From positions 1-64,000 of IMG/VR virus record IMGVR_UViG_3300008459_000031: DNA of 64,000 bases. One strand, given 5' to 3'. Below, piece after piece: positions 18,935-37,275 of this stretch. Under the pieces are notes generated by a model, which saw only the letters and a list, made by a program, of their open reading frames with translations, was not told the origin of the DNA and ran no database searches. The position numbers and the translations under genes are program-made. Source of the DNA: a virus. Each line of letters begins with the position of its first letter. Position 1 is the first letter of the stretch.

Positions 18935-21900
18935 TTATTTAGTTGATGTAGCAGGTAAGTCAAACCACTTAGCAGCTGTAGCTGGATCAGATGATTTTTC
19001 AATACCCCCTAATATTGGAATCATTGCTTCGAACTTAGCTAATAATTTGCTGTCCCCTTTTTGATGTATCCCAGACTTTCTTTGGTAGTATAACCCTTCT
19101 GTATCTCCTGTGAATATAGATGGGATAGCTTTGAATGCTACCATATCAACAAGCTCTATTGCTTTTGTAACAGGACGTACAGTTGCTGTAGGTGAGTTAG
19201 CAGCTTTTAAAAATTCTATAGGACGTACAAACTGAGTTAATTCTGTCTGCATACGTAAAGCTTGATATATTGCAAAGCTTTCAAACCATGAATCATCTTC
19301 ATCATCATCATCTGATAGTGACATTACAATCAAAGCACATAGAGTCCAGAATGCAATAGATACTACAGATCTTCTCATGTTCTGCTTCTCCATGTCTGTC
19401 ATCATCTTATAAACTTTAACACCATTACCAGCATTCTTATAAGTCTCTTTTATGAATCTCCATAGAGTTTCCATTGTACCTTCTGAGATAGTACCTAATT
19501 CTAAGTCACGATGAATACCACCACGAAGACCGTTATGTCCATAATGTTTACGAAGAGATGGGATAAAGTAACGACGGAATAACATAATCAATTTACCATA
19601 CCATCTTCTTTGAAGAATAGCATCATCGAATTTAGTTTTAACCTGGTTGGTTCTTTTGTTTATCCCTGATATCTTAGCCATAAATCTACTTCTATTGAAG
19701 TTGGCTACTTTAGGATCTACTCCGTATCTACCAGTTTTTTCATCTTTAACAAATACATCCCAAAGATTTGCATCTTCTCCTTTCTCATTTTTAATTACGT
19801 TTCCATCTTTGTCTTTAAGCTTTCCTCTATAGCTATCCATTAAAGCAAGCATTCTAGTAACTGCTGTCTCATGTTCAGCAATAGTTTGTAATGCCATTGG
19901 ACCTTCTTGTAAAAGCTTTAACATTCGTGGACCAGTCTTGTCTTCTTTTGTAGATCCTAGTACTTCCCCTAATGCATCAAAGTATCTAATAGCTTGCACT
20001 ATTTTAGTTTGTGGAGCAAAGGTTTTAAAGTCTTTCAATGATCCTAATCCACCTTCACTAGTTAAGTGGTAGATACCCTTAGCCCAAGTCATGTTCTTTT
20101 TATTAAAGAACTGTTGTGAGTGTGCTTCTTCCATCAAACGTACGTTATCGAGTAACATCTGATTAGTAGATTGAAGTAAGTTACCAGCTAAGTTTGCAAG
20201 AGCAGTATAAGATGCTACTTTATTTGATAATTTATTTGATGATATTTGCTTACCAAATATGTTTAAAGCAGATTTAAGTTCTTCTTCCCCAAAGAATATT
20301 TTATCAATCCATTCTGATAAGTGCTTAAAGTTATTTCCACCTTTACCAGCAGTCTGCATTTTAGTTCCTTTTAAGATCTTTGACATTCTGTGTAAAAGTG
20401 GATTGTTGTCAGCTGTTACTGCTAATACTTCTCTTTCTTGTATGATGTCTCTCATTAACATAACAGAGCCGACAATTTCAGATTTACTCTTAAACATGTT
20501 GGCCATTCCTCCAAAGAGAATTAACGAGCTAGCTACGTCTTTACTTACTAGTTTAGAATCTACAGGATTTGTGTAGAAGATAGGAATTGTTTTATCTCTA
20601 GCTTCTTTGTTAGCATTAATAACATCTCCGTAGTTTACATCAGTAGATAGGAATTGAAACGAATCTTTAACAAAATCTTTAGCTGCTGTAAAAGCTCCAT
20701 CTTTTTGTACTTTCTCTAATCCTTCTGATCTAACTGATGGTACTATATAACTAAACTTATCCCAAGAGTTTTTAGCAAGACTATTCTGCCCTAACATCTT
20801 CTGCTTTTTGTAGTAGAAGTTCATCATGGCTTTATAGTAAGTAAATGCAGGAGCATTATTTTTTAATGCCTCATATTTAGCATTTTTATACTTATCATTA
20901 GGACGTACTGCTGAAATCTTCCACTGCTCATTTATAGGATCATACATCTTATCCATCAAAGATTTTAGTGAAGATTGTTCCCCTTCTAAATATTGAATCT
21001 TATCTGGATCTATAAGAGCTGCATCTTTTGATTTCTCTTCTACTAATTTTTTACGTACATTTTTAAGCTTCTCTGATAGTACATTATACTTTTCTTGAGA
21101 ATCTTTACTTGGTACAGAGTTTTCTTTATACCATTTAGCAACTTCTTTATAGTATTCTCTTACAGTAGATTTATTTTTTAACCACTCTTGTATCTCTTCG
21201 TCACCCTTCTCTGGTTTATTATACTTTGTAGCTAAATCTGCATACATTTTAGATTCAGCATTCTTATATCTAGTGACATCAAATTCTTGTACAAATGAAA
21301 GAAGAGTTACTTTCTCTGACTTTTCTTTATCAGGATTGTAAACCATGTATTCAACTTCTTCTAAAATATCTTCGTTGAATTTATTAGGATTTAAACCACT
21401 TCCTTTTGCTTTCTCAAATTCTTTATAAGCTGCAGCTAGTTCATAGATATCATTCTGTGTCTCATCATTTGCTTGATACATTTTATCTTTAAGCATAGAT
21501 GCAAACATTTGTATCCCTACTTGAGAAGAATAAATAATTGGATCTAGAAGATAACTAAATGCAGACTTATCTTTTTGAGCTTCAGTAAGTTCTTTGATTA
21601 ATGTATCTCTTGTAATCAGCTTATTTTCTAACTGCTTTATATTCAATGCTTTTAATGCAGCAAACTCATCAGCTTTATCTAGCTTTTGAGATTTTATTTT
21701 ATTGTACTCCTCATCTCTTTCAATAGCTACTAAACGATCATTGTCTTTGATATTTTGTATGAGTTTATTAATCTCATCATTTATATCATCGTTTGAATAT
21801 TCCATTAGCAAGTCAGCCATAAGTGGGATACCTACTTCTCTATAGGTTTCCTCCACCATATTCATTCTATGTATAGCTTCAGTAATTTTCTTTTCAAATA

Positions 21901-23482
21901 ATGAAAGTGATTTAAATTTAGGGTCGTCTTGTAACTGTTCTACACTTAAACCTTTTTTAAGTCTTAACAAGTCTTTTGAAACTGCAAAACCAATTTTTTG
22001 CATTATACTATCTTTCCCATCTACTCCACCATAAAAGCTTCTTACCCATTCACTTACTTTGTATAATTCATGAATAAGCTGTAATCTTTCTGTGGTAGGA
22101 AGAACTTCATTATATCTCTCATTAATTTTATCTAAGTTTTCTTCAGCTCTGTCTGCAAGTCTAGATGCATAATTTACAAACTCTACTAATTCTTCTACAT
22201 CTTGAATCTTATCAAGTCTTTTCTGCATGAGAGATAATCTTTCTATTGCAGTTTCATTTAAATCACCAGGAGTACTTTTAAGTTTGTTGATGCTCTCTTG
22301 TGTTGCAATACGAACATCATCTACAATCTTCATGAAGTCTTCTTCTCTCTTATTTACTTTACTATCAGCCATTAAGAAAGTAATAGAACCTTTTAAATCT
22401 GCAGCAGTATATCTTCTTTCTAGAAGCATACGTGTCAGATCTTCAACTGCAGATGGTTTAGCCTCTGTACCAAATAACTTTGATAATGCTCTTACAACTC
22501 TATTAAATATTCTTTGGAAGAGATTAGGGTTTTCTCTTTTAATCTTAGCCCCACTTAATCCCATAGCAGATACTAGAACTTCTTTATTTAAAGCTTTCTC
22601 ATCTAGTTCTGGGTATGCTTCTTTAACTTTTTGATAAAGATTAGTAGACTTCAATTCATTTATAGCTCTTACTACTACAGGATGATCTTCCCCTAAAAGT
22701 TCTACAAGAATATGACTGAATTCGTGGATATGAGTATCCTCAGTCATAAGTAGTGGATTTAGAACAACTGTTAATATTTTACCTGGAGTGTTAATAACTC
22801 TACCTTTTACTTCTAGAGTAGGGTCAATTTTAACTTCTATGTTTATCCCAGCTTTAGCAAAGTCAGATATAAAATTGTTAATATCTTTTTGTATAGAAGG
22901 CATCTCTGCTCTTTCCATATCTTCAAGATCTAAACGACTATCTAAATCTTCGAATAAATCTAGTTGTTTTCCAGCTTCTCTAGATAATTTTTTTGTTAGT
23001 TCTTGTTCAGCTTTTGCTATGCTCAACTCTTCTTTACTTAATTCAATTACTCTTGGTCTAAGTATAGGGTTAAATTCATAAGCATTTAGAGCAAACTCAT
23101 ATGGATCTACTCTGTTAGGTAACTTAGTGGCTACATTTTTAGTCAGAGCTAGAGTTGCTTTTTGAGAAATTTGGACATCGTAATGAGTCTTACCTTTATC
23201 TTTATATGGGGTTATTACTGCAAGTGGAGTAGGAGAACCATAATATAAGGCTGCTACTGCATTTAAATCTGCTATCTCTTGAAATAGAACATCTTGCATA
23301 GTAACCGATATCCTATTCCCAAGACCTATAACACCATCATTAAGAAGAATGTAATTGATCGTATAAGGATCTACTACATCGTTATTTGCTAACTGATTAT
23401 CTATGTATTCAATAACCTTACTAGTCGTAGGAGATTTTCTTACATTTCCGTTTTCGTCTGTTTTAAAGTATCCACATGCCAT
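18935..23482 (-). CDS. giant probable virion cargo protein with zincin-like domain (1515 aa)
   Basis: Last gene of the virion block, next to the virion RNA polymerase. HEFSH at residues 253-257 (HExxH) within THIHEFSHILVELLG is a zincin-type metalloprotease site and is preceded by a beta-strand pair (GRVINTPGKILTVVLNPL) as in that fold. The middle 700 residues are long charged helices and coiled coils. Near the C-terminus a hydrophobic helix (about 1373-1391) is followed by SDDDDEDD. In characterised crAss-like phages the proteins encoded beside the RNA polymerase are packaged in the capsid and delivered with it. A role in cleaving cargo or host proteins after ejection is inferred. A possible promoter box lies just before the ATG. 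Confidence 0.75.
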   Translation of the reverse strand: MACGYFKTDENGNVRKSPTTSKVIEYIDNQLANNDVVDPYTINYILLNDGVIGLGNRISVTMQDVLFQEIADLNAVAALYYGSPTPLAVITPYKDKGKTHYDVQISQKATLALTKNVATKLPNRVDPYEFALNAYEFNPILRPRVIELSKEELSIAKAEQELTKKLSREAGKQLDLFEDLDSRLDLEDMERAEMPSIQKDINNFISDFAKAGINIEVKIDPTLEVKGRVINTPGKILTVVLNPLLMTEDTHIHEFSHILVELLGEDHPVVVRAINELKSTNLYQKVKEAYPELDEKALNKEVLVSAMGLSGAKIKRENPNLFQRIFNRVVRALSKLFGTEAKPSAVEDLTRMLLERRYTAADLKGSITFLMADSKVNKREEDFMKIVDDVRIATQESINKLKSTPGDLNETAIERLSLMQKRLDKIQDVEELVEFVNYASRLADRAEENLDKINERYNEVLPTTERLQLIHELYKVSEWVRSFYGGVDGKDSIMQKIGFAVSKDLLRLKKGLSVEQLQDDPKFKSLSLFEKKITEAIHRMNMVEETYREVGIPLMADLLMEYSNDDINDEINKLIQNIKDNDRLVAIERDEEYNKIKSQKLDKADEFAALKALNIKQLENKLITRDTLIKELTEAQKDKSAFSYLLDPIIYSSQVGIQMFASMLKDKMYQANDETQNDIYELAAAYKEFEKAKGSGLNPNKFNEDILEEVEYMVYNPDKEKSEKVTLLSFVQEFDVTRYKNAESKMYADLATKYNKPEKGDEEIQEWLKNKSTVREYYKEVAKWYKENSVPSKDSQEKYNVLSEKLKNVRKKLVEEKSKDAALIDPDKIQYLEGEQSSLKSLMDKMYDPINEQWKISAVRPNDKYKNAKYEALKNNAPAFTYYKAMMNFYYKKQKMLGQNSLAKNSWDKFSYIVPSVRSEGLEKVQKDGAFTAAKDFVKDSFQFLSTDVNYGDVINANKEARDKTIPIFYTNPVDSKLVSKDVASSLILFGGMANMFKSKSEIVGSVMLMRDIIQEREVLAVTADNNPLLHRMSKILKGTKMQTAGKGGNNFKHLSEWIDKIFFGEEELKSALNIFGKQISSNKLSNKVASYTALANLAGNLLQSTNQMLLDNVRLMEEAHSQQFFNKKNMTWAKGIYHLTSEGGLGSLKDFKTFAPQTKIVQAIRYFDALGEVLGSTKEDKTGPRMLKLLQEGPMALQTIAEHETAVTRMLALMDSYRGKLKDKDGNVIKNEKGEDANLWDVFVKDEKTGRYGVDPKVANFNRSRFMAKISGINKRTNQVKTKFDDAILQRRWYGKLIMLFRRYFIPSLRKHYGHNGLRGGIHRDLELGTISEGTMETLWRFIKETYKNAGNGVKVYKMMTDMEKQNMRRSVVSIAFWTLCALIVMSLSDDDDEDDSWFESFAIYQALRMQTELTQFVRPIEFLKAANSPTATVRPVTKAIELVDMVAFKAIPSIFTGDTEGLYYQRKSGIHQKGDSKLLAKFEAMIPILGGIEKSSDPATAAKWFDLPATSTK

Positions 23483-23499: not shown

Positions 23500-26400
23500 T
23501 TATATTGAGCAGGACATATTTCCAGCTTCAATTGGTAATTTTCCTCTGTCTAATAAATAAGTAGTGCTTCTTGCTATGTTGTTCTTTATTTGAGGAAGTA
23601 CTTCTTTATTTTGAATCTTCATATAATTTAACCCATAAAGCTTCACACTACCTTTAGTTGTATACGTACCTTCTAATCTTCCGTATTGAGTCATAATAGA
23701 TCCATCTCCAGATTTTACTTGGTCTAACTTAGCAAATACTGCACTTGTACCAGTCTTACGATTTCTTACTACTATAAAGTTATCAGTGCTCTTATCTAAA
23801 ATAGTCTCTGTTCCTGAAGAAAGTGTATCATTACTAACCCTTTTAACTAAGTTACTTCCACCAGCTCTCATCTTTCCAAATGCAGCCATGTAGTTAATAA
23901 TGTCTTGTGAATCAAAGTACTGAGATTGTCTAGCTTTAAATGCTTCTTGTCTGAAGAAATCTAAAATGCTTATTCTATCTTGTACTTCTACTCCAGGTTC
24001 TGATGGGCCTTGCTCAACCTTCATAGGAGTTGTGAAGAATTCTAGAGGAACAATATCAGCATATGAACTAGCTCCTTGTCTAAATCCATTTACAAAGAAG
24101 CTGTGCATTGCTAGTTTTATAGCAAAGAGTTTGACTTCTCTTATACCAGCAGCAACTGATGGATCAGTATAGTTACCTTCACTATCCATTGTTTTATCTC
24201 CTGGTACATAGAATTGTGGGTTATACAGTAGATTATACAATCCGTCTGTATAAGATTGCTTTTCAGTTGCAGTAGCTTTAAATGTATTATCAAACTTAAT
24301 TCCATAGTATCTAGCTTCTGTATCTGTATCAGGTTCTAAGTTAGCTATGAATGGGTTTGTATTCAATGCACGATACTTTGTTTTTAAAGCTTGTAATTTT
24401 GTATAAATATTATTATCTGGCTTATTATACAAGTTTGTCATGCTATCCATCAAAGAAGCAAATGGAGAGCCAGGTTTCATAAGCATCATGAACATCAAGT
24501 TGTAATCAATCAACTGATGCATTTCAGGAGTTAACTCTTCAGTACTTACATTCCCTAGTAGCCCTTTCTTAAATAGTTTAAAAGATTCAGATAATCTAGT
24601 AGGGAAGAATACTCCTGCAAAGTCAAGACCGTTTCTTAATAGATTATCGTAACCTCTTTCTAATCCATAATTAGACTTCTCACCGATAAATTGGTCAGTG
24701 ACATTATCCATAGACCCTGGTTCAAAGAATATTGGAGTCTTTAGAGAATCTTCATTCTGATCAAATGTATTAGCTCTATCTAAATAAGATTGTATAGAAC
24801 CTATCCTTCCCAATCCATCCATTGAATCTGGGGTTACTCTCTTCCCTAGTTTCATAAGAGTTTTACCAGCTTCATAGAACTTCATGAAGTTAGCAAGCAT
24901 CTTTAATTGTTCATCTACATTTCTATTCTCTTTACTTAAGTTTTCTAATTCTTCTACATTCATGTTAAATGTACCGGGCTTATTTAGATTTAAGTAGCCA
25001 TTTGGATCTTTTAGTTTAGAAGTAAAAATTTTATAAGCTGTTGTAAGATTCATCAAATTACCAGCTTCGGTGGTCTCAAAGTAATTTGTAAATTCTTTAA
25101 CCAATGGTTGATTTAAGAACAAAGAACAAAGTCTTGAAGAATACTCTGGGAAGAATCCTGAGAATAAAATTCTGATACGAGATGTTAAAACTGTATCGTT
25201 AAGTTCATATTGTACGGGAAACTTAGCAGCATCCACAGCAGCAGATAAGAATAATGATATGCTTTTATCTGTTGGATAAGATCTGCTTGTAGTATCAAAT
25301 GGATTTTCATAAGAAGTCTTTATATAATCTCTATATTCCTCTCCATTAATTTTGATAGAGTAATCGTTATGTATTCTAACATTACCATGTTGTAATACGT
25401 TACGTGCAGCTAGTGCATTTGCATAGATACCACGAAGCTTATTTCCAAGAGTACTACGACGAGCTGTAATAGCTTCTGTGTTATAATCACTCCAATCTAA
25501 TTCTTTTCCAAGGTCTGGAGATTTAGATTTAATCTCATCTACAACAGTATTCAATGTAGTATCATCAAGTGGAGTAAACACTTCTTTGAAGTGAGCAGGG
25601 TTTGAATACACTGCCTCCATCAAATCTAATATTACATTATTAATCTGTTCATTAGACAACTTCGATAAGTTCTTTGATTTTATTATACTAGCATAATCTA
25701 CAGATACTTTTTCTAGTTGTTTAGTTTCTTTATTAACTCTAACTTCTGGGAATAAGAGATTTAACTTATCGACGTCAAAGTCAGATCCCATCAATTTAGT
25801 TAGCTGTCCCGGTACAACAACTGCTTTTGCATAGTTGTTCGGTAAGATTTTAGCAATCTTAAGCATGACTACAGAAGCTTTATCCTGATTAGGGATACGA
25901 TAACCTACAATTCTTCTAAGTTCTTCTGGGATAGAGTCTAAAGATTGTCCTGGTTGTATTCCAAACTTACGAGCTACATCCTCACGGATCATAACTTCTG
26001 CATGGATTACTCTTCTACCATCTTCAGATATTTGTAAGAACTTTAATGCACCACTTCCATCAACTTCTGATCCACCTAATTGTGTAACCTGAACTGCTTC
26101 AAACCCTTTAACTTTCTGTTTGAATACTTCATTGTTTATTACAGACATTATGATAGACTCATACTTCTTATTGTATAGAGGTATATCAAGTGGAGCTACA
26201 AATCTAGGAGTACCATCATTTTCAAATACAATATCTAAAGCTCTTTCATAGTTAGAGTGAAGCTCTTTTGTTCTAGCTTGCTTGAGTACTTTTTCTCTTA
26301 CAGTTTTTAATATATCTAACTTAGCTGCATTTATCTTATTGATATCATTGCTTTCAGAAGCTTTATAAAGCTCAGTTAATCCAAATTCATCTTCAACCTT

Positions 26401-29400
26401 CTTTGTATCTCTAGCAAGTTTCTCTTCTATTGAAGCATGATAAAGATCTTTTAAATCTTGACCTGAGATATTTATATCTAAAATTCCAGGAGAGATTTGG
26501 TACATGGTAGCATCTTCAACATTGGCCACCATATTTTTTTTAATCTGACGGTTGAGAGCATTTTTTGGATCTTCTTTTGCAGAAGGGATAAATTGTGGGA
26601 ATCTTAATCCTGATGAATTATGAGTATTAACTCCTGCTTCTCCTAGCATTCCCAATCTACCTGTATGTCTATAGATATTTCTCTTAGATAGCTTTTTACC
26701 AGATACAAAGTTTACTACATGCACTGGCTCTAAACCTGTATATTCTTCTACAGATTCCATTCTTCTTCGTATATCTTCTAAGAATGGAGAATTTTTAGTA
26801 TAAGATTTTAATAGTACGAAGTAAGAGTTCTTTTGAGAATCAACAGATAATGTTCTTCCAACATTGTTGTAAGACATTTTTTCGTAGTATCCTTTATGTC
26901 CTAATGTTGGAACAGGATCCCCAACTTTTTTACCATCAGGAACAAATCCTTTTTGATATACAAACTCTCCTGTTACCTTATATGCTTTATAAGCTTCTTC
27001 ATCTTCTCTCTCCCACTTCCCTAAACCTTGCATAATGCTTCTATGCATATCTAAGCTAATGAAAGCCTGAGCATCTGTAGATTCGTATTTACCTGGCCTA
27101 AATGCATCAGAAATTGTTTTAGCCTCTTCTTCAGAAACACCACTTTTAACTAGCCCAATATATATGTTATCAGCTTGAGCATTTGTTTCTACAGTTTGTT
27201 CTGGAGTAAGATTCATTCTGATATCTCTCATAGCAATCTCATTGAACTCTTTCATCATTCCATAAGATTCACTAATGTCTCCAACCATAACCATTTTGGT
27301 TCCAGGAGTAGTCAAGTGACCCATACGTTTGTAGAAGTCTTCTTGACTTTTATGTAGAGCTCTATTTCCACGGAATAGTTTTACTATTTCGTTTCTCATA
27401 ATAGCATTCTCTACTACAAATCCTTTTAGCAAGCCTTTTAGATCTACTCCGATAGCTCCACTCATTCCAATCTCTCCTAATTTTTTTGCTTTCTTTAACT
27501 CTGCCTCTAAAGCTAAAGCTTGAGAAGAGAAGTATTCAAGCATCTCATTAGTCATTCTATCTAAACGAGCATCAAATAATTTCTGAGATTCTGCATCCAT
27601 AGACTTATCTACATAATCCATGATCTTATCACTCATCTGAGTTACTCCATTAATCCTTACTCCAGGATCATCTTGCAGAGTTTCATCTGTTACTATATAT
27701 TTACCATCAGCATTCTTAGCTCTAAACTGGAAGAAAGATTCTTTGAATGCATTACCAAGGTATTGACCATTCTCTACTAATCTTGTTGGATCTCCAGAAG
27801 CTGTATGATAACCTTCTTCTAAATCTGCATAATCTATTTTACCATTCAAGGCACTTTTTACAACTGCTTTAGCTTGGTTTACTCTCACTAAGTCTTGTAC
27901 AATTTGAGCTTTAATCAAATCTTTATGAGACATAAATTGTTTAGAGAAAGCATTCTTGCTAATTCTAGGTACTTTTACAAATGTAAATTTGTCACGGTCT
28001 GATTGAATTGGTACAGCAATATATGTATATTCACTATCTGTTCTGTTATTTATAAAAGCATTTATAAGAGTAACCATTGTATCGACTTCTGAAAAGTCTT
28101 CATATGCAAGAGCCTCTTCATATTCTGACCCCATCTTACTTGCATCAAAGTCAAATACCCCAAACTCTTCTAAAAACTTGCCATCCATTAGATGCTTAAA
28201 TAATACACTTGTAAACTCAGGTCTCCCTTTTACATTTATGAATTCATCTTTAAGATATTCTTTTAGAAGTTCTGCAGAGTTTTGAGATTTCTCTTTCAAT
28301 ATACTTACAATCTGAGCCATATGTGTCTCAGTGTTTGTACCGTAAATTGCTTTTCCCTTTCCATTAACAAAGCTGATACCTGCAATAGGCATAGTTGATT
28401 TGAATATCTTTGCAAAATCTATAGCTGCAGATTTACGAGCAGTTATAAAATCTAAGTTTCTATCATTCTTTACAGATACAAATTCAGCAAGTTCTGAAGA
28501 TTTGTCTCTAGTAAACTCTCCTACTTGACGAATGAATGACAGAAGTTGAGTTTTAATAGTTCTCATAGAATCTACTCCTGTCTTACCGTCTATTCCATTA
28601 TCAGCAATAACTTGTAATATCTTTTGAGTATCTCCTACATTAGTATTATCTCCTATGTATAATCCTAATTGAAACATAGTTTCTGCTAAATGAACTACAA
28701 CAGGATTTACTTGTCCATTTATATTAGCCACATTTACATTACCAAATTTTGGTAATAACTTCTCAGCTTCTTTCCAAGCTTTTGCAGCATCTAGTACTCT
28801 CTTTTTATTTGTAGTAAGGGTCTCTATAACTGTCCCATCTTCTTTAGTGATGATGTCTTTTCTATATAAGGCCATTCCATCTACTTCAGAAATAAGTGTA
28901 TTTTTCCACTTCTCTGCAATAGCTGTTGGAATGTCTTTACGATTAGGATTGAAGACTTCAACATAGTTTACTTTATCATCTACCTTTTGTTTTAGCATTA
29001 CAAATTCAGTATTGCTAAGTGCAAATGCAGAGAATATCATAGCCTTTTCAGACTCTGTTAATTCGTTTAAGAAGTTAAGAACATTTCTTAATTGAGGCTT
29101 TAACTTAACTTCTTGTACAAGAGCATTCCTCATTGCAGTATAAGTCTGCTTACCACTAAATATGTTTAATAACTCTTTGAATACAACATCTCTATTTAAG
29201 TATGTTTTAACACCTAAGCTATTATATTCATTTGACATAATAGTAGATAGCAATTCTCTTACTCTTGCCGTAAGTCTTTTTGCAGGGCTAATCTCCATAC
29301 TACTTTGTCCATATATTTTTCCTACTGCTTCATCTATGATTGCAAATTCATCGTTCAATTGATCTAATTCATCTTCAGCTTCTGAAGGAGTTTCTAGATC

Positions 29401-30603
29401 AGTATCGTATTTAAACTTAGAATCAATGTATATACCAGCATCTGTAAGTCTGTTTACTAAAGCTGTTCTCCAACCTTCTTGAATAATATTTCCAGATTTA
29501 GATTGTACTACATCTTCCCAAGTGGTGTATATGTTTTTATAAACTGTTCTCTTACGTAGATTGTCCCCCATTGCAAAAACTAAATTGTTTTTAGCAAGTA
29601 CATCTCTAAGAGCTTGCAGATTTTCTTGAGATTTATTTTCTGTATAGGCTTCTTCAGCAGCTATAGTTTCAATCATTGCAGCATAGTCTGTTGACATGTT
29701 TAATTTAGAACCATCTGCTTTAGCATATATTTTTGTTAAGAATGAGTTTGCTATTGCTCCTTTATTAGTTCCAGATCCTAAAGCAATTGTAGATTCAAAA
29801 CTATTTTTATAGCTATTTCTCATCTTTAGAAAGTCTGTATACAGAACATCGATAGCATCTGTAATAGTCTTATCTCCTAATCCAGGACGACTTAAGTATG
29901 CTTTTTTAGTTCCTTTAAACTTTTCTGCATTTCTGAATACTCCTCTACCAAGAATAGAAGAGTTCATTTTATTACTTTCAATTAAAGAATAAACCTGCTT
30001 TAATCCAACACTGTCACTAAACATTGCTTTAATGAAGTTCCACAAATCTCTAAAGAACTTAGCAATCTTACCAGGAATAGACTTTTCAGTAGCTTGATCA
30101 GTAAGAACATACTCTCTGAATTCCTCAGACATTTTTTCTTCAAGAACTAACTTATAAGCATCTTCATCAGAAATTTCTGGGAATTGATTTTTAATAGCAG
30201 CTATTTCAGAGTCAGTAGGTTTTCCAAAACTTTTCTCAGCTTCTGCATATAACCCTTGTCTTTGCTCTTCACTAAGCATTGTTCTAAATACTAAGTGATA
30301 AGCTTCGTGATACTCTGTACCAACTTCAGCAGCAGACCAAAGGTATATCGATGCATTCTCTACATATCCGTGAACTTCTTCATTTCCAACAGATTGTGCA
30401 GTCTCAAAGATATTTACAGCATCTTCTCCAAATCTTTCTGCTAACCAAGACTTTGCTTTATTAGATCTATCAGAATTATTTACATAAAACATTGAAGGAA
30501 CATTCCCCATGTATTTATCCCAAAGGAAATATGCTAAGTTTTCACCTTGAACACTTACAAGGTCTTTCCATTCTTTAGATGATGTGTTTGGACAAAATGC
30601 CAT
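23500..30603 (-). CDS. giant virion RNA polymerase with N-terminal zincin-like domain (2367 aa)
   Basis: Single-subunit crAss-type RNA polymerase. DFDVD at residues 1608-1612 is the metal-binding DxDxD of the second double-psi beta-barrel. It sits in a context (KILPNNYAKAVVVPGQLTKLMGS before it, KLNLLFPEV after it) that I recognise as the crAss-like catalytic loop. The best-studied relative, phi14:2 gp66, is carried in the virion and transcribes early genes after injection. At the N-terminus HEAYH (99-103) is an HExxH zincin site followed by an acidic helix, so a protease-like domain and a polymerase share one chain. The size is in the range of the known family (about 2,200 aa). It lies between two other giant genes with gaps of 3-17 bases. 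Confidence 0.9.
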   Translation of the reverse strand: MAFCPNTSSKEWKDLVSVQGENLAYFLWDKYMGNVPSMFYVNNSDRSNKAKSWLAERFGEDAVNIFETAQSVGNEEVHGYVENASIYLWSAAEVGTEYHEAYHLVFRTMLSEEQRQGLYAEAEKSFGKPTDSEIAAIKNQFPEISDEDAYKLVLEEKMSEEFREYVLTDQATEKSIPGKIAKFFRDLWNFIKAMFSDSVGLKQVYSLIESNKMNSSILGRGVFRNAEKFKGTKKAYLSRPGLGDKTITDAIDVLYTDFLKMRNSYKNSFESTIALGSGTNKGAIANSFLTKIYAKADGSKLNMSTDYAAMIETIAAEEAYTENKSQENLQALRDVLAKNNLVFAMGDNLRKRTVYKNIYTTWEDVVQSKSGNIIQEGWRTALVNRLTDAGIYIDSKFKYDTDLETPSEAEDELDQLNDEFAIIDEAVGKIYGQSSMEISPAKRLTARVRELLSTIMSNEYNSLGVKTYLNRDVVFKELLNIFSGKQTYTAMRNALVQEVKLKPQLRNVLNFLNELTESEKAMIFSAFALSNTEFVMLKQKVDDKVNYVEVFNPNRKDIPTAIAEKWKNTLISEVDGMALYRKDIITKEDGTVIETLTTNKKRVLDAAKAWKEAEKLLPKFGNVNVANINGQVNPVVVHLAETMFQLGLYIGDNTNVGDTQKILQVIADNGIDGKTGVDSMRTIKTQLLSFIRQVGEFTRDKSSELAEFVSVKNDRNLDFITARKSAAIDFAKIFKSTMPIAGISFVNGKGKAIYGTNTETHMAQIVSILKEKSQNSAELLKEYLKDEFINVKGRPEFTSVLFKHLMDGKFLEEFGVFDFDASKMGSEYEEALAYEDFSEVDTMVTLINAFINNRTDSEYTYIAVPIQSDRDKFTFVKVPRISKNAFSKQFMSHKDLIKAQIVQDLVRVNQAKAVVKSALNGKIDYADLEEGYHTASGDPTRLVENGQYLGNAFKESFFQFRAKNADGKYIVTDETLQDDPGVRINGVTQMSDKIMDYVDKSMDAESQKLFDARLDRMTNEMLEYFSSQALALEAELKKAKKLGEIGMSGAIGVDLKGLLKGFVVENAIMRNEIVKLFRGNRALHKSQEDFYKRMGHLTTPGTKMVMVGDISESYGMMKEFNEIAMRDIRMNLTPEQTVETNAQADNIYIGLVKSGVSEEEAKTISDAFRPGKYESTDAQAFISLDMHRSIMQGLGKWEREDEEAYKAYKVTGEFVYQKGFVPDGKKVGDPVPTLGHKGYYEKMSYNNVGRTLSVDSQKNSYFVLLKSYTKNSPFLEDIRRRMESVEEYTGLEPVHVVNFVSGKKLSKRNIYRHTGRLGMLGEAGVNTHNSSGLRFPQFIPSAKEDPKNALNRQIKKNMVANVEDATMYQISPGILDINISGQDLKDLYHASIEEKLARDTKKVEDEFGLTELYKASESNDINKINAAKLDILKTVREKVLKQARTKELHSNYERALDIVFENDGTPRFVAPLDIPLYNKKYESIIMSVINNEVFKQKVKGFEAVQVTQLGGSEVDGSGALKFLQISEDGRRVIHAEVMIREDVARKFGIQPGQSLDSIPEELRRIVGYRIPNQDKASVVMLKIAKILPNNYAKAVVVPGQLTKLMGSDFDVDKLNLLFPEVRVNKETKQLEKVSVDYASIIKSKNLSKLSNEQINNVILDLMEAVYSNPAHFKEVFTPLDDTTLNTVVDEIKSKSPDLGKELDWSDYNTEAITARRSTLGNKLRGIYANALAARNVLQHGNVRIHNDYSIKINGEEYRDYIKTSYENPFDTTSRSYPTDKSISLFLSAAVDAAKFPVQYELNDTVLTSRIRILFSGFFPEYSSRLCSLFLNQPLVKEFTNYFETTEAGNLMNLTTAYKIFTSKLKDPNGYLNLNKPGTFNMNVEELENLSKENRNVDEQLKMLANFMKFYEAGKTLMKLGKRVTPDSMDGLGRIGSIQSYLDRANTFDQNEDSLKTPIFFEPGSMDNVTDQFIGEKSNYGLERGYDNLLRNGLDFAGVFFPTRLSESFKLFKKGLLGNVSTEELTPEMHQLIDYNLMFMMLMKPGSPFASLMDSMTNLYNKPDNNIYTKLQALKTKYRALNTNPFIANLEPDTDTEARYYGIKFDNTFKATATEKQSYTDGLYNLLYNPQFYVPGDKTMDSEGNYTDPSVAAGIREVKLFAIKLAMHSFFVNGFRQGASSYADIVPLEFFTTPMKVEQGPSEPGVEVQDRISILDFFRQEAFKARQSQYFDSQDIINYMAAFGKMRAGGSNLVKRVSNDTLSSGTETILDKSTDNFIVVRNRKTGTSAVFAKLDQVKSGDGSIMTQYGRLEGTYTTKGSVKLYGLNYMKIQNKEVLPQIKNNIARSTTYLLDRGKLPIEAGNMSCSI

Positions 30604-30606
30604 TGG

Positions 30607-33600
30607 TTATTTATTTGTAATACATTTATTTTTCTTTCTCTCCCCTTCTTCAGCAGATTCTTTTATTACGTCTGATAAGCTTTGCATAGCTCCACCCATT
30701 GGATTCAAGCCTCTTAGTTCTGCTTCCATCTCTGCTTTAAGAGCTTTTTGCATTTCTGCATTAGGCTTTAAGTGTGCAAAAGGGTTAGAAGGGTCCATCA
30801 AAGGTACAGATTTTTGTTCAGTTTTTGGAGCAGCACCAAATAAATCTGCAGGTAATTCATCAACAACTACATCTAAAGTAGATTGTGCAACTGGGGCAGG
30901 AGCTGCCGGTGTAACAACAGCTGGTGTTGTGGGTTGAGTTTGAGTTTTAGAAAGTGATCCAGGTCCGTAGAAAGATTTAGCATTGTATATCACATAAAAA
31001 GGATCTACTTTTTGTTTACCAATTATATGATTTAAAACTTTAACTCCTTTTACTTCAGGGTTTGATTTCTGAAAATCATTGAATAGGTTTATAATTGCAG
31101 GACTTTGATTTGCTTTTTCTGTATCATTGTACTCAGCATCAGGATTGTCAGATATGTAAGATCCTGTAGCTGGATTGCTAAATTTATAACCTTTTGCTTT
31201 TAGCTCTTCATAAATTTCTTTCTCAGATTTATTAGCATCTATAACTATAAACTCAGATTCATTTATCTCACCTGCAATTGGCTGACCATATCTTTGAACA
31301 AGGAATGGAGTAGTAGTAGAAGATGCATTTAAGCCATCTCCAAACTGGCTGATTTGATCTTTACCTCTTTGGAAATTACCAAAATCAAAGTTTTGTGGAG
31401 CAACACTTGTGTGATGATACACAGTAACTACATTTTCTGGTGTTGTAGTTGCAGGTATTGCATTATCAGCAAGCCTAACAATTCTTAATATTCCATATTT
31501 AGAATCATTAGGTTCTTCAAAAACACCATTTTCATCTATAGCATCGATAGTTTGAATACCTCCAGCTTGATTTTTGTAATCCAAACTTGTAGAAGCCCCA
31601 TCATATCTTATACCTTCAATTTTTGTAGTTGCCTCAGAAGTTCTTTTGCTGCTACTTGCTGTAATAATTATAGTATCACCTACTTTCCAAGTAGAAGGTG
31701 AGGCTTTTTGAGCAGGAGCTAGTGTTGCAGGAGCAGTAGGGGCTTCGATGCTATCTAATACTTTTACAGCATTTGATACTTCTAATTGAGCTTGAGTTGC
31801 AATTCCTCCTCCAACACCTGTTAATGGTGTGAATTCAATTCCAACATCATAGAATGGGGATTTGTTAACACTGCCTGGAGAGTCAGTAGTTAAGATTACA
31901 TTAGCCCCTAGTCCTTCAGTTCTAGGTTCTGTGAATTCTTTATCACTATTTAAGTAATCAAAGTATGAAGGATACTCAATACCAGTAAGAGCACTAATAT
32001 AAGGTTCTGTGTTATTAATTCTATTGATATCAACTTGATACTTCTTATCCATAATAATGTCTAAGAATTCTTGTTTTAAGTTTGGAGTTACTCTTGCATA
32101 CTCAGCTTTCTCTCCTTTTATTGTAACTAGAGATTTCCATCCTTTTTCGTTAGTACCTAGCTCAGAGAATGTGAACTTAAATGGTTGCCCTAGTAAAGCT
32201 TTCTTAAGTTCATCTTCATTTATTCTGACAAGTTTGTTTGCAGATTTAGAGTAGAAAGTAAATAATACTTTACCATCTGTAAGAGTAACTTGAGACATGT
32301 ATTTCTTAAAGTCTTCTGTAGATATGTCTTCCCCTTCATTTAAATCTATTGCATCGTTTTCATCTGCAACTTCTACAGGAAGTTTATTTAATCCTACAAT
32401 CTCCCCGAATAGTTGAGCCTCAGGGTTTTCCTTAATTAAATGATTAACTGCAATTGTTCTTCCTTCTTCAGTCATAGACTTTGTAGAAGCCATTACAAGA
32501 GCAGGATTACCATTAGGATCTTTTACTATAATTGCTACTTGTCCAAGTGCAACATTGCTTGTATCGAATGGTAGATCATTTCCATTCTGATCCATGAAGA
32601 CTCGAATACCATCTTGAATTCTTACTACAGCAATATTTGAAGAACCTTTTACAATGTTTGAAGATGGATAGAAGAATATCTGACCATTAGATGTTCTAGC
32701 ATTAGCTATATTCGTAGAGTTAAAAAGCTTTCTACTAATAGTAGAAGATGCAGTAATTCCTTGCTTATAAAGATTATATATGTCTTGTCTAGATAATCCA
32801 GTATTCTCATCTGCTTTATAAGCAGCTAACATTCCTACTCTAACTGATTGACCATTAGGAAGTTGGGCAACTACGTAGATAGGAACTTGTTCCCAATATC
32901 TATCTTCTGTTAAATCTTTTTTGTTATTTTTTGTTTCAGGATTTTCAGAATTCCACCAATCACTAGATTCATCTACTTCAAATGTAATGACTGTACCTGC
33001 AGGAGTTATGTCACTATCTGTTAGCATTTCTGGATAAATAGAGACAGTCTCTCCACCTACCTTTTGCTCTATCATATTAGATACAGGATCTCCAGATTCA
33101 GTTACAGTTTGCTCTGTAAAATTAGAGTTAGATTTAATTTCCCCTTTAGCAAGTGGAGCATCTACAGGACCTTCTGCAACTACAGCAGTTACTTGTGGTT
33201 CTTCAGGATCTTTTTGATCATCGTCGAATGGAGATGGAGTCTCATTAAATGTTCTTTCTATCTGCTCCCACTGCTCTCTTTTCTGACGGATTATTTCAAG
33301 TTCTTCTGCTGTGGTTGTGCCATCCACCCCTTCCTCCGTAGATCCTGCTCTAGAATCGATATTCGTTGCTTCAGGCTCTTGCCCTTCAGTTGCAATGTCA
33401 GTTCCTTCGGTAGCGTTACTTGCTTGACGAAGTTTTTCAGATTCACGTTCTTCATTTATTCTTTGTATTAGTTCTTTAGATTTACGAATACTCTCTTCCC
33501 TTCTCTTAATCTTATTCTGAGTATTTCTAATTTCTTTCTTAGCAGCCTCTACATCTTGTCCAGGATAAGTTCCATCTGCTATCTTTTTAAGTTCAGTTTC

Positions 33601-36600
33601 TACAAGTTTTAACTGAGCTATTTCATCCTCTAATCTGCTAATTTTAGATTCTTCCCCTTTAGTTATTTCATCAACCTCTTCTTCTAGTGGGGCTTGTTCG
33701 ATTTCTTCTGCAACAACTTCTTCATCAGTATTTTCTTGAATATTAGAAGCTTTCTTTCTTTTAGCAAGTTCTTTAATTTTCTTAGTTAATAAAGCTTTGT
33801 GAGACTTTTTAATAGCCTTTAAAGTTTTAACATTTCCATCAGCATTAAACTCTGCTTCTGTAAATCCGGCTTCCATAGCTACTTGTCTTTCAGCAGCTAG
33901 AATCTCATCTATCTCAATTAAGTCTTGTTTAATTACTTCAATCTGAGCTCTTATCTGACCATCTGTTAGACCAGCAGTTTTACCAATGTCAGTAGTAGCT
34001 ACTAATTTTTCAAGTTCCTCTTCCATTTCAACAATGGTATCTGGATCTTCTACAGAGTCTAATACTTCAAATTGTTTAGCCTTACCTTTTAACGTATCTT
34101 CTTGAGCTGCTACCTCTTTCTTATGTTTCTTAAGTACATCTTCTGTAATAACTTCTCCACGAACTCTTTGAATTTCTTTAAACTCTTCTGCAGACATGTT
34201 AGCTATAGCTTCTACATCTCTAATAGAAGATGCCTGTACAAGAATAGCATAAGTAATTGTATCAGCTATTGCTGAATCTTCTTCATTCTGATCATCTAGC
34301 ATCCAAGTAACTTCGTTACCTGTAGCAGCATCAGTTAATCTAACTCCTATTCTATTACCTTCTTCATCATAGATAATAGCATCAGTTGGAGTTTCATTTA
34401 GATTTAAATATGTTCTTCCATTTATAGTAAATATAAATCCACCAGAAGATACTGATATATTTCCTAAAGCTGCGGCTTCTGCATCTGATAGTTCTTGTGC
34501 ATATTCTGTATAACTTGCTGTTGGAGCAAATTCATCTCTTCTTTGCAGTTGTCCATTCTGATATTCTACAGTTCTTTCAGCAGTTCTTTTCTTATCTCTT
34601 GCATCTTTCTCCTTTGCTAATGCTGCTGCAGCAATTGGGGGAAGAGATTCTTCATCAATAGCTTCTAACATATCGTCAGTCATGCTACTAAATTTAGCTC
34701 TTTCTTCTTTTTCTAATTGCTCTAATTCTTCTACTTTTGCCTCAGCTGCTGCTATTATTTCTGCAGGAGCATCTTCAGGCATATTCTCTCTAACTTCATC
34801 AGCTGTTTCTGCATTCTGAACTACTTGAGCAGCTCTATCTGCAGAAGCCTTCTTCTCTTCCTGCTGTCTACGGGCATATTCAGCTTCTACATATAAATCC
34901 ATGTTTTCTGGATTACGACGTAAGTTATCAAAAGATGTTACAATACCTTCTCTTCTTTTTACTAAGTTCTGCAGGGCCCATGTGGCAGTTTGAAACTCTT
35001 CAGCATCTGCAGGGTTTAATGCATACTTAGCTTGAAATATCTCATTAAATTTTTCAAATAGTTTAGCTTCAGGAGATATTGTAGATTTAAATGCAAAGCT
35101 TAGTTTACCCTCTTCATCTATATTTACTTGACCTATTTTTACTCTGTAAGTAAAATCTTCTTTTGATATTGCCCCTAACTCTGGAGCAATTTTAACTAAG
35201 TGGTCATATACATCATCTATCTGTTCGTCTATAACATCTATGTCCATTAAGCCTGCATGCAGTACTTGAGAATATTGATTTCTAACTAACCTTTGAAGTT
35301 CTTTGTTATTTTTAGTTTCTTCGTTTTGAAAAGAATCTAAAAGTTTTGGGAGTAAAGTATTTTTAGGTTGGTATTTAGCTAAGATATCTTGTACTTGCTT
35401 AGATCTTTTTATAGATAATTCTACTTTATTTTTAACATCTTGTACAAGTTCAGATTGAGTTTTACCAGTCTGAGTTTTTAGACTAGAATTCATTCTATAT
35501 CCAAATGCTTTTTTAAACTCATCTTCTGACATAGATGCAGCATCATCTAACTGCTCCAACATGTAATCAGTAGCACCCATAGCATTCATTCTTGCTGCTT
35601 CTGATCTAATTAGTTGAACACGAGCTCTTTCTGCATCTTGTTTTGCAACAGCTTTTTGAACTGGTGTAGCTTCTTCTGATTCTAAAACTTTATTATTCTT
35701 TTCTATTATGTTTACCAATGCTGTATTATAAGCATTAGATTCCATATTTTCTATAACTTTTGTTAAGCCACCACTGTTTATATATTGTAAAACTTTAGCT
35801 GTATTAGCTGTACGAGCTTTTGCTAGTTTAGAATCTGCTCCAGCTATACGACTTACAGCTCCTGTTCCTCCCCCTACAATAGCTCCAATCAATATATTTT
35901 CTAAACCTTCTTTACTTCCTAATGTTTTACTTAAGGATTCAGACAATGATTTAGACATGTCTCCAATACCATCACTAAATTTATCTCCATAATAATCTCT
36001 TGAAAACTCAGATGCAGCAAATTGAGAACCTTCTTGGAATCCTTCTGTAGCCATATTTTTAACAGGGCCTCCAAATATTCTAGATGATTTTGTCCAAGCT
36101 TTTGCAAACTTACCATCCATTCCAGCTTCAACTAATTTTCCAGAAGCATCTTTGGTAGCTTTATACATCTGACCTTCTCCAATAGCTGCTCCCTTAAACA
36201 TTTTACCAAACATAATAATGTTAGATGTAGCTAGGATTGGAAGGTTAATAGCAAAAGCAGCATTACCAGCAGCATCAGCAGATTCCTCTATCCCGTTCAT
36301 TACATCAGTTGGGACTTCTTGGCCAGGATTTTCTTCTTGCCATTTAGCTACCTGTTCTTCTATAAATCTAGTTCTAGTCTCACGAGCTTCAACAGATGCT
36401 TCTGCTAATGACATTTGAGTAGCTACTCCTAATCTTTGAGTAGCAGTAGATATCCTAGCCATTCTAGCAGCTTTTTCTAGATCTTCTCCAGTCTGTATAG
36501 CTTTACCAGCTCTGTATAATGCTAGCTGTCTACTACCTAATGTCGAAGCATCTTCTACAACATTAGCAGCTCTTGCACCTTTTTCAGCTAATCCTGCAAT

Positions 36601-37275
36601 ATCTAATGCAGTATCCCCAGCTTTTAAGGCTTTACCAGCTCCAGCAATTCTGCTAGCTAACCCTAGTTCTCCTGTTCCAAGCCACATTGTAGCAATAGAA
36701 CCTAATGTATAACCAAGACCGTTAGCTACTTTGTCTGCCCAAAAGTTTGCAGTACCTAGATTAGATAGTAAGCTTCCGTTTATTTCTTCTTGTGTATAAT
36801 AGTTTGGTAGCTTCTCTTGAGCCCAGTCATTTACTGCATCTACTTGTTTACCTACAAAGTTGTCATAGTATTCACCACCAGTAGCTAATGAACCTAGACC
36901 TGCTAATACTCCTACTGTGTTTTCATAGATAGCTCCTAAAGTAGTAATACCAGCTTTAGTTAATCCATTTACCCACTTATCATATGTGGTTTGCCTTTGA
37001 GCTCTTTCTTCATTTAAATCTGCAAATGGATTAAGTGGTACCCCATATTCTCTGTAGCTTTCTAATGGATCTGTATAAATAGCAGATACATTTTGAACCC
37101 TAGAAGCAATATCAAAAGGGTTTATATTTCCTGTATTCGGAGCTACAACTGGTTTACCAAAAAAATCTTCTACAAAACTTTTTTTTGGGTCTGCATTATC
37201 TCCAGAGGGAGATACTATATTTGTTTTAGGTAATCCTGTGATCTCACTTATAAAGCTTGTAGATTCTTCTGACAT
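30607..37275 (-). CDS. giant probable ejected protein with ADP-ribosyltransferase-like C-terminus (2222 aa)
   Basis: N-terminal 500 residues contain several glycine-rich hydrophobic stretches (for example ILIGAIVGGGTGAVSRI near 460-476), suggesting membrane insertion during DNA ejection. The centre (about 550-1400) is Glu/Lys/Ala-rich coiled coil. A C-terminal segment (about residues 1945-2105) reads as an ADP-ribosyltransferase-like fold: YHHTS, then GDGLNASSTTTPFLVQRYG, ending with PFYVIYNAKSF. The His and Tyr positions look right; the usual final Glu is not obvious, so activity is uncertain. Pro/Thr/Ala-rich linkers flank this domain. The combination of ART-like and zincin-like domains in neighbouring giants fits the polyvalent-protein concept of phages. 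Confidence 0.75.
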   Translation of the reverse strand: MSEESTSFISEITGLPKTNIVSPSGDNADPKKSFVEDFFGKPVVAPNTGNINPFDIASRVQNVSAIYTDPLESYREYGVPLNPFADLNEERAQRQTTYDKWVNGLTKAGITTLGAIYENTVGVLAGLGSLATGGEYYDNFVGKQVDAVNDWAQEKLPNYYTQEEINGSLLSNLGTANFWADKVANGLGYTLGSIATMWLGTGELGLASRIAGAGKALKAGDTALDIAGLAEKGARAANVVEDASTLGSRQLALYRAGKAIQTGEDLEKAARMARISTATQRLGVATQMSLAEASVEARETRTRFIEEQVAKWQEENPGQEVPTDVMNGIEESADAAGNAAFAINLPILATSNIIMFGKMFKGAAIGEGQMYKATKDASGKLVEAGMDGKFAKAWTKSSRIFGGPVKNMATEGFQEGSQFAASEFSRDYYGDKFSDGIGDMSKSLSESLSKTLGSKEGLENILIGAIVGGGTGAVSRIAGADSKLAKARTANTAKVLQYINSGGLTKVIENMESNAYNTALVNIIEKNNKVLESEEATPVQKAVAKQDAERARVQLIRSEAARMNAMGATDYMLEQLDDAASMSEDEFKKAFGYRMNSSLKTQTGKTQSELVQDVKNKVELSIKRSKQVQDILAKYQPKNTLLPKLLDSFQNEETKNNKELQRLVRNQYSQVLHAGLMDIDVIDEQIDDVYDHLVKIAPELGAISKEDFTYRVKIGQVNIDEEGKLSFAFKSTISPEAKLFEKFNEIFQAKYALNPADAEEFQTATWALQNLVKRREGIVTSFDNLRRNPENMDLYVEAEYARRQQEEKKASADRAAQVVQNAETADEVRENMPEDAPAEIIAAAEAKVEELEQLEKEERAKFSSMTDDMLEAIDEESLPPIAAAALAKEKDARDKKRTAERTVEYQNGQLQRRDEFAPTASYTEYAQELSDAEAAALGNISVSSGGFIFTINGRTYLNLNETPTDAIIYDEEGNRIGVRLTDAATGNEVTWMLDDQNEEDSAIADTITYAILVQASSIRDVEAIANMSAEEFKEIQRVRGEVITEDVLKKHKKEVAAQEDTLKGKAKQFEVLDSVEDPDTIVEMEEELEKLVATTDIGKTAGLTDGQIRAQIEVIKQDLIEIDEILAAERQVAMEAGFTEAEFNADGNVKTLKAIKKSHKALLTKKIKELAKRKKASNIQENTDEEVVAEEIEQAPLEEEVDEITKGEESKISRLEDEIAQLKLVETELKKIADGTYPGQDVEAAKKEIRNTQNKIKRREESIRKSKELIQRINEERESEKLRQASNATEGTDIATEGQEPEATNIDSRAGSTEEGVDGTTTAEELEIIRQKREQWEQIERTFNETPSPFDDDQKDPEEPQVTAVVAEGPVDAPLAKGEIKSNSNFTEQTVTESGDPVSNMIEQKVGGETVSIYPEMLTDSDITPAGTVITFEVDESSDWWNSENPETKNNKKDLTEDRYWEQVPIYVVAQLPNGQSVRVGMLAAYKADENTGLSRQDIYNLYKQGITASSTISRKLFNSTNIANARTSNGQIFFYPSSNIVKGSSNIAVVRIQDGIRVFMDQNGNDLPFDTSNVALGQVAIIVKDPNGNPALVMASTKSMTEEGRTIAVNHLIKENPEAQLFGEIVGLNKLPVEVADENDAIDLNEGEDISTEDFKKYMSQVTLTDGKVLFTFYSKSANKLVRINEDELKKALLGQPFKFTFSELGTNEKGWKSLVTIKGEKAEYARVTPNLKQEFLDIIMDKKYQVDINRINNTEPYISALTGIEYPSYFDYLNSDKEFTEPRTEGLGANVILTTDSPGSVNKSPFYDVGIEFTPLTGVGGGIATQAQLEVSNAVKVLDSIEAPTAPATLAPAQKASPSTWKVGDTIIITASSSKRTSEATTKIEGIRYDGASTSLDYKNQAGGIQTIDAIDENGVFEEPNDSKYGILRIVRLADNAIPATTTPENVVTVYHHTSVAPQNFDFGNFQRGKDQISQFGDGLNASSTTTPFLVQRYGQPIAGEINESEFIVIDANKSEKEIYEELKAKGYKFSNPATGSYISDNPDAEYNDTEKANQSPAIINLFNDFQKSNPEVKGVKVLNHIIGKQKVDPFYVIYNAKSFYGPGSLSKTQTQPTTPAVVTPAAPAPVAQSTLDVVVDELPADLFGAAPKTEQKSVPLMDPSNPFAHLKPNAEMQKALKAEMEAELRGLNPMGGAMQSLSDVIKESAEEGERKKNKCITNK

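What the first reader, a model, noticed from the sequence alone, without database searches (positions are those of the whole stretch)
23500..30603. Virion RNA polymerase with an N-terminal HExxH domain in one 2367-residue chain
DFDVD at residues 1608-1612 marks a crAss-type double-barrel polymerase, and HEAYH at 99-103 marks a zincin-like domain 1,500 residues earlier. One chain combining a candidate protease with an ejected RNA polymerase suggests self-release or host cleavage on entry.
Basis: partly seen in the sequence, partly recalled or inferred. Interest (0 to 1): 0.75.

Follow-up and report, generated by a model that had tools for sequence, protein, structure and literature searches.

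The report
Phage RNA polymerase carrying a protease
In a relative of the common gut phage crAssphage, the RNA polymerase thought to be carried in the particle and injected with the DNA begins with a protease-like domain, and comparison with many relatives shows that this is one arrangement of a widespread order of parts in which protease domains flank the polymerase.

Summary
Window 23500-30603, minus strand, is one 2367-residue frame with HEAYH at 99-103 and DFDVD at 1608-1612. The polymerase is crAss-type: a family profile matches phi14:2 gp66 (PDB 6vr4) at E 1.8e-176. Residues ~49-210 (Z1) form a zincin. H99, E100, H103 and E156 are invariant in 68 relatives, and E156 was not part of the search motif. 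The predicted fold has the active-site helix and the glutamate helix, and its best PDB alignments are zincins.

The fusion is not peculiar to this phage. Crass-like phages share a module order: upstream cargo protein, Z1, polymerase, second zincin (Z2), downstream cargo protein. Gene boundaries move along it. Z1 lies on the polymerase here, on the upstream protein in crAss001, and inside one giant frame in Suoliviridae. Z1 and Z2 are paralogous.

"Self-release" is not supported as a general rule. Intact zincins are not significantly commoner where modules are fused, and one fused clade has W, R and T in place of the zinc ligands. Host cleavage is untested. I favour an injected protease acting after entry, mainly on phage cargo. 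New variant of a known kind: zincins in N4-type virion polymerases and crAss cargo are already described.

The parts
23500..30603 (-). crAss-type RNA polymerase with N-terminal zincin (P0001, 2367 aa)
29974..30459 (-). Z1: zincin domain, residues ~49-210
   Evidence: tblastn to Crassvirales zincins, alignment A3, AlphaFold2 model, VIA-align
30295..30309 (-). HEAYH, residues 99-103: predicted zinc ligands H99, H103 and catalytic E100
30136..30138 (-). E156: predicted third zinc ligand, invariant in A3 and not part of the scan pattern
24691..27543 (-). polymerase region used as profile A4 (residues 1021-1971), homologous to phi14:2 gp66 850-1765
25768..25782 (-). DFDVD, residues 1608-1612, catalytic motif of the polymerase
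18935..23482 (-). P0003 (1515 aa): Z2 zincin followed by 'dn' module, homologue of phi14:2 gp65 and crAss001 gp49
22388..22900 (-). Z2: second zincin, residues ~195-365 of P0003
   Evidence: hhalign with Z1, probability 96.7, E 4.2e-10; model m9cfd35abe39b; VIA-align
22712..22726 (-). HEFSH, residues 253-257 of P0003
18938..20992 (-). 'dn' module of P0003, residues ~831-1515
   Evidence: tblastn to gp65/gp49 families
30607..37275 (-). P0002 (2222 aa): 'up' module, family of p-crAssphage KP06_gp45 and crAss001 gp47, here without HExxH
   Evidence: phrog_32390 E 7.5e-22
48467..49360 (-). tail ring protein 1 (Crassvirales marker)
   Evidence: PF24228 E 1.9e-56
59216..60631 (-). major capsid protein (Crassvirales marker)
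   Evidence: PF23898 E 3.7e-84

Best explanation
P0001 is the catalytic RNA polymerase of a Crassvirales phage and carries a zincin metallopeptidase domain (Z1) at its N-terminus. Z1 is an old part of a conserved module order (up, Z1, polymerase, Z2, dn) whose gene boundaries have moved; here the boundary falls just before Z1. Shown by computation: domain identity, order, paralogy of Z1 and Z2, intact catalytic residues, a lineage that lost them. Inferred: the chain is packaged, ejected and refolds in the host, as for crAss001 cargo, and Z1 binds zinc. My preferred function: once inside the cell, Z1 and Z2 act as proteases on the injected phage cargo (up, polymerase, dn or channel proteins), in cis or in trans, to free the polymerase from the ejection complex. 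Anatomy about 0.93; this mechanism about 0.4.
For: Polymerase: A4 profile hits 6vr4 at E 1.8e-176 through GSDFDIDK. Zincin: T96, H99, E100, H103, E156 invariant in 68 sequences; model strands 63-66, 70-72, 75-82, 85-89, helices 96-108 and 146-172, 10-residue mean pLDDT 83-96 for residues 81-170; the top VIA-align rows are nearly all zincin-family chains, led by IrrE/PprI and PPEP-1. Conserved order with moving boundaries; Z1, polymerase, Z2 and dn in single frames in L055, L150, L154, L155, L156, L184. HExxH-to-DxDxD spacing 1280-1633, median 1467, n=38. Virion presence by homology: crAss001 gp47 (which bears Z1), gp49 and gp50 are detected in virions by mass spectrometry (PMC10172136 passages); phi14:2 gp65-gp67 are annotated from MS/MS. 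Catalytic residues intact in 38 of 44 recognised Z1, the six losses in one clade.
Against: No experiment shows zinc, proteolysis or a substrate. Foldseek alone gives no significant PDB match (best E 0.26 for Z1, 0.13 for Z2), and VIA Z scores are below 8. No Pfam family is recognised for Z1 in the window. Z1 is undetected in 17 and degenerate in 5 of the 58 surveyed polymerases whose 5' boundary is known, so it is dispensable. Cargo as substrate is inference from location alone.
Confidence: 0.5

Rival explanations
1. Self-processing: Z1 and Z2 cut the chain at their own junctions, maturing a giant precursor into up, polymerase and dn.
For: Z1 and Z2 sit at the two junctions where other lineages have gene boundaries. 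Iyer et al. 2017 propose autoprocessing by such domains and cite P1 DdrB (passages). Z1 is undetected more often in split (14 of 29) than fused (3 of 29, plus 5 degenerate) contigs.
Against: Association not significant for Z1 (p 0.18), absent for Z2 (p 1.0); phylogenetically independent pairs 6, median p 0.625. The window clade keeps both zincins although the parts are already separate genes. Five fused frames of 5178-5641 aa (L160, L161, L163, L168, L169) have W-E-R..T in Z1, and no frame over 150 residues in those loci has an HExxH. N4 vRNAP is packaged uncut (Iyer 2017 passage).
Confidence: 0.25
2. Host-directed effector: Z1 and/or Z2 enter with the polymerase and cleave host proteins (regulators, RNA polymerase factors, defence).
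For: The best structural analogues include IrrE/PprI and the antirestriction protein ArdC. Z1 relatives also occur in five cellular-genome loci without a polymerase in view (L208, L212, L215, L216, L217). Retention regardless of fusion state suits a substrate outside the junction. Iyer 2017 lists effector action as an alternative.
Against: No substrate, no sequence link to a known effector; fold resemblance shows no function. Those five loci are short and may be partial phage genomes.
Confidence: 0.25
3. Structural or packaging module: the zincin fold serves assembly, docking or encapsidation; catalysis is secondary.
For: One clade keeps the domain with all ligands replaced; crAss001 gp49 has EEFAH at the Z2 site. 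The zincin region of N4 vRNAP is required for encapsidation (Iyer 2017 passage).
Against: Catalytic residues are intact in 38 of 44 recognised Z1 and HExxH in 43 of 53 Z2, more than a scaffold alone would need.
Confidence: 0.15
4. Chance HExxH in an unrelated helical domain.
For: HExxH turns up in 1.2% of shuffles; no Pfam match.
Against: Conserved third ligand, predicted zincin fold, homology to other crAss HExxH domains.
Confidence: 0.03

Closest known systems
Cellulophaga phage phi14:2 gp66 (PDB 6vr4) and crAss001 gp50, crAss-type two-barrel virion polymerases
   Same: Homologous polymerase region and DxDxD motif; flanked by the same up and dn families.
   Different: gp66 and gp50 carry no HExxH and no recognisable Z1; in crAss001 Z1 is on gp47, on the opposite strand.
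p-crAssphage KP06_gp45 ('putative RNAP associated protein fused to zincin protease') and jaberico homologue (note ZnMc_tr)
   Same: A zincin in the transcription block, already annotated; HExxH in register with Z1 and Z2 in weak hhalign alignments.
   Different: Sits at the C-terminus of the upstream protein, not on the polymerase; homology to Z1 inconclusive (probability 13%, two sequences).
Suoliviridae giant proteins (cr50_1 4774 aa and others)
   Same: Same Z1; spacing to the polymerase motif 1489 residues versus 1509 in the window.
   Different: Upstream module fused in the same frame; Z2 not detected in cr50_1.
N4-like virion RNA polymerases with MPTase domains (polyvalent proteins, Iyer et al. 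2017)
   Same: Works-like parallel: injected phage polymerase in one chain with a zincin.
   Different: The N4 polymerase is T7-like, unrelated to the two-barrel type; its zincin lies C-terminal (residues 2130-2448).
IrrE/PprI (M78), PPEP-1, ATLF-like and ArdC zincins
   Same: Predicted fold.
   Different: No significant sequence or Foldseek link.

Membership tests
Crassvirales | Crassvirus capsid and tail-ring proteins | tested here: met
   PF23898 E 3.7e-84; PF24228 E 1.9e-56
crAss-type two-barrel virion RNA polymerase (phi14:2 gp66) | DxDxD catalytic motif in GSDFD(V/I)DK context | tested here: met
   (DHDVD in L004/L005)
crAss-type two-barrel virion RNA polymerase (phi14:2 gp66) | homology to the solved polymerase over the core | tested here: met
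   6vr4 850-1765, E 1.8e-176
crAss-type two-barrel virion RNA polymerase (phi14:2 gp66) | two double-psi beta-barrels in one chain | not tested
crAss-type two-barrel virion RNA polymerase (phi14:2 gp66) | present in the virion and injected | not testable with these tools
   inferred from crAss001 and phi14:2
Zincin metallopeptidases | HExxH plus third ligand on a following helix | tested here: met
   H99, E100, H103, E156 invariant in 68 sequences; the H/E/H part was selected by the scan, E156 was not
Zincin metallopeptidases | beta-sheet, active-site helix, glutamate helix | tested here: met
   AlphaFold2 model; best VIA rows are zincins, Z up to 5.4; Foldseek alone not significant
Zincin metallopeptidases | zinc binding and proteolysis | not testable with these tools
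   needs protein
M78 / IrrE peptidases | sequence membership | tested here: inconclusive
   M78 is not among the 25 of 49 families shown for Z1; one of 54 Z2 members matched at E 0.048
N4-like virion RNA polymerase | T7-like single-subunit polymerase | tested here: not met
   homologous to the two-barrel polymerase 6vr4 instead
Polyvalent-protein MPTase (Iyer 2017) | zincin fused to other effector or enzyme modules in a delivered protein | tested here: inconclusive
   architecture fits; their family profile was not available, and BFVD matches named as polyvalent have E 0.088 or more

The most novel reading that the evidence does not exclude
The Crassvirales polymerase descends from a single delivered chain in which two paralogous zincins bracket the polymerase, one at each junction, and act after entry to release and deploy its parts. 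Gene boundaries have since slid along the chain (at least six changes at the first junction), the protease staying with whichever neighbour kept it, and one clade has turned Z1 into a pseudoprotease while keeping everything fused. Phi17:2, with up and dn modules but no polymerase or zincin detected among six large proteins, would mark the bracketed unit as a separable cassette.
Probability: 0.3. Interest if true: 0.7.

Novelty: new variant of a known kind. Interest (0 to 1): 0.5.

Why it matters
Crassvirales are among the most abundant human gut viruses (PMC10172136 abstract), and how megadaltons of cargo leave the particle and start working in the cell is open. A conserved protease pair flanking the injected polymerase gives a concrete, testable candidate for a step after ejection. 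The natural variants (zincin on the polymerase, on the neighbour, inside a giant chain, or dead) are ready-made controls. The parallel with N4, an unrelated polymerase also fused to a zincin, suggests a convergent need for a protease beside an injected polymerase.

Tried and rejected
Chance motif: rejected (conserved third ligand, fold, homology). Pfam, PHROGs and direct PDB sequence search of P0001: nothing; only the A4 profile reached 6vr4. Foldseek against PDB: no significant match for either model; BFVD gave 12 matches at E<=0.001, those named being crAss-like proteins. Self-processing as a general rule: tested by contingency tables and tree pairs and not supported. Stop-codon read-through between P0002 and P0001: in the window the two frames are in phase, separated by TAA CCA, but in 9 of the 13 relatives compared the frames differ, so I do not favour it. 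An ADP-ribosyltransferase guess for the P0002 C-terminus (~1949-2100): no Pfam match at E<=10 and no phage match at E<=1; unsupported. Alpha-group zincin as orthologue of Z1: inconclusive. Papers: searches for crAss terms with zincin, metalloprotease, protease, metallopeptidase or polyprotein listed no paper on this fusion in the held open-access library; the 2018 crAssphage annotation paper and the 2021 phi14:2 structure paper are recalled, not seen (not held), so prior description there cannot be excluded.

Limits of the counts. The Z1 scan selected on Tx[YF]HEA[YF]H, so HExxH frequency in L028-L107 means nothing; only E156 and the polymerase-based survey count. The Z1 profile was built from intact sequences and may miss divergent ones. 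The 'fused' state was partly assigned by frame length. Ten named phages were added to the tree; several were fetched through zincin hits, so they are left out of the 66. For A3, rows L125 and L126 (weak) and all named-phage rows were dropped. In one search three negative spacings came from a later zincin overwriting Z1; one search uses another set of loci and method.

Full report
What is there. The window is part of a 71,630-base virus record. Its minus strand carries the late genes, including a Crassvirales major capsid protein and tail ring protein 1. P0002, P0001 and P0003 follow one another with gaps of 3 and 17 bases. P0001 (23500-30603, minus) has 2367 residues, HEAYH at 99-103 and DFDVD at 1608-1612. 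P0003 has a second HExxH, HEFSH at 253.

The polymerase. Tblastn of P0001 finds 86 of 50,697 phage records, mostly crAss-like, aligned mainly over residues 1056-1626 in the 60 rows listed. A profile of 34 sequences (A4; window plus 33 of 67 available rows) matches the solved phi14:2 polymerase 6vr4 at E 1.8e-176, chain residues 850-1765, with the DxDxD block in register. Two relatives, L004 and L005, read DHDVD.

The zincin. Tblastn of residues 1-217 finds 68 phage records at E<=1, best 4e-12. Only 60 rows were listed; those that carry a phage name are crAss-like or relatives from animal faeces. In an alignment of 68 sequences (A3: window plus 67 of 69 IMG/VR rows), T96, H99, E100, H103 and E156 are invariant. 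E156 was not part of the search pattern, so it is independent evidence. AlphaFold2 (mean pLDDT 78.7, pTM 0.74) gives four strands, then the helix with HEAYH, then the helix with E156. VIA-align ranks IrrE/PprI (Z 5.4, rmsd 2.8, 88 residues), PPEP-1 and other zincin-family chains first; Z is below 8 and Foldseek alone is not significant. Against predicted viral proteins the 12 matches at E<=0.001 are crAss-like proteins where named.

The second zincin. In 54 Z2 sequences, not selected on their own HExxH, E254, H257, Y290 and E301 (P0003 numbering) are invariant; 43 of 53 non-window rows keep HExxH. Z1 and Z2 profiles align with probability 96.7 and E 4.2e-10 over 151 columns. The Z2 model (pLDDT 83.3, core 94-98) aligns best to zincin-family chains, Z up to 7.1. 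crAss001 gp49 reads EEFAH at the site.

Order and boundaries. Profiles for up, Z1, polymerase, Z2 and dn were run on the fetched loci. The order is constant and the gene boundaries are not. Window clade: up | Z1-polymerase | Z2-dn. crAss001, cr128_1, Dulem virus 41: up-Z1 and polymerase in separate genes, then degenerate Z2-dn. Suoliviridae and many environmental contigs: up-Z1-polymerase | dn. L055, L150, L154, L155, L156, L184: Z1, polymerase, Z2 and dn in one frame of 4656-5557 aa. phi14:2 has no recognisable Z1 but keeps Z2. The Z1-to-DxDxD distance is 1280-1633 residues, median 1467, in 38 contigs. In 13 relatives the gap between the up frame and the first Met of the polymerase frame is 1-15 bases.

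Survey without selection on HExxH. From the polymerase scan (best 80 of 517 relatives), 66 non-redundant contigs remain. Z1 is recognised in 44: 38 intact, 6 degenerate, the six forming one clade with SH-aLRT support 100. First junction: fused 21 intact, 5 degenerate, 3 none; split 15 intact, 14 none; 8 with the 5' end open. Second junction: fused 9 intact, 1 degenerate, 5 none; split 27 intact, 3 degenerate, 18 none, 1 without dn; 2 open at the 3' end. Fisher tests of fusion against intact zincin: p 0.18 and 1.0. On a 77-row tree (66 plus the window and ten named phages) the first junction changed state at least 6 times and Z1 at least 8; the test on independent pairs has only 6 pairs and median p 0.625. 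The window clade has 14 rows with support 93.

The dead clade. L160, L161, L163, L164, L168 and L169 read GTxYWEAFRR in place of GTxYHEAFH, with T for E156, in recognisable Z1 domains; no frame over 150 residues in those loci has an HExxH. Five of the six have all modules fused in frames of 5178-5641 aa; L164 is open at its 5' end. These zincins cannot be expected to cut those chains by the usual chemistry.

Elsewhere. A scan of genome contigs (84,980 bacterial and archaeal species) gave 10 relatives of 38 pattern matches. Four have the polymerase in the same frame, one has up-Z1 with dn nearby, five show Z1 without a polymerase in the short locus. Phi17:2 belongs to the Epsilon group, said to lack the transcription block (PMC7886860 section 3 part 2, read). 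It has an up match (gp039, 1.5e-38) and a dn match (gp036, 1.4e-42), with no convincing polymerase or zincin match in six large proteins.

How it probably works. crAss001 virions contain gp45, gp46, gp47, gp49 and gp50 by mass spectrometry; these cargo proteins are thought to pass the tail partly unfolded (PMC10172136, passages). gp47 bears Z1, so a Z1-bearing protein is a virion component in that phage; that the domain itself persists is inference. The catalytic residues are kept across fused and split arrangements, so the substrate is probably not only the junction. I favour phage cargo as substrate after entry, with host proteins close behind.

Known and new. A zincin in the crAss transcription block is annotated in public records. 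N4-like virion polymerases fused to zincins were described by Iyer et al. 2017 (PMC5512222, passages), who proposed autoprocessing or effector roles. I found no paper in the held library that describes the two paralogous zincins flanking the crAss polymerase, the moving boundaries, or the dead clade; most subscription papers are not held.

Noticed in passing
L160, L161, L163, L164, L168, L169: Clade with recognisable Z1 in which both histidines and the third ligand are replaced (W, R, T); five of the six have giant fused frames, one is open at the 5' end.
   Followed up: yes
L218 (Cellulophaga phage phi17:2), gp039 and gp036: Up and dn modules present without a detectable polymerase or zincin in the six large proteins tested.
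   Followed up: partly
window 30604-30609, minus: P0002 and P0001 are in the same frame, separated only by TAA CCA; 4 of the 13 relatives compared are also in frame.
   Followed up: partly
window 30607-37275, residues ~1949-2100 of P0002: YHHT...FGDGLN stretch reminiscent (recalled) of ADP-ribosyltransferase domains of polyvalent proteins; no tool support.
   Followed up: partly
L015, 8067-16313 (Leptolyngbya phage Lbo-JY46): A cyanophage protein of 2748 aa carries the dn module and two HExxH motifs.
   Followed up: no
L004 and L005, polymerase: Catalytic motif reads DHDVD instead of DFDVD.
   Followed up: no
window 11627-14449, plus: 940-aa frame with a GHKL-type ATPase match (PF13589, E 1e-5).
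   Followed up: no
L212 and L215: Z1-like zincins on contigs binned as Aenigmatarchaeota and Woesearchaeota; could be binning errors or unknown viruses.
   Followed up: no
L016, L018, L020, L022, L023, L026, L027: Giant transcription frames annotated as intact are broken under table 11, consistent with stop-codon recoding reported for crAss-like phages.
   Followed up: no
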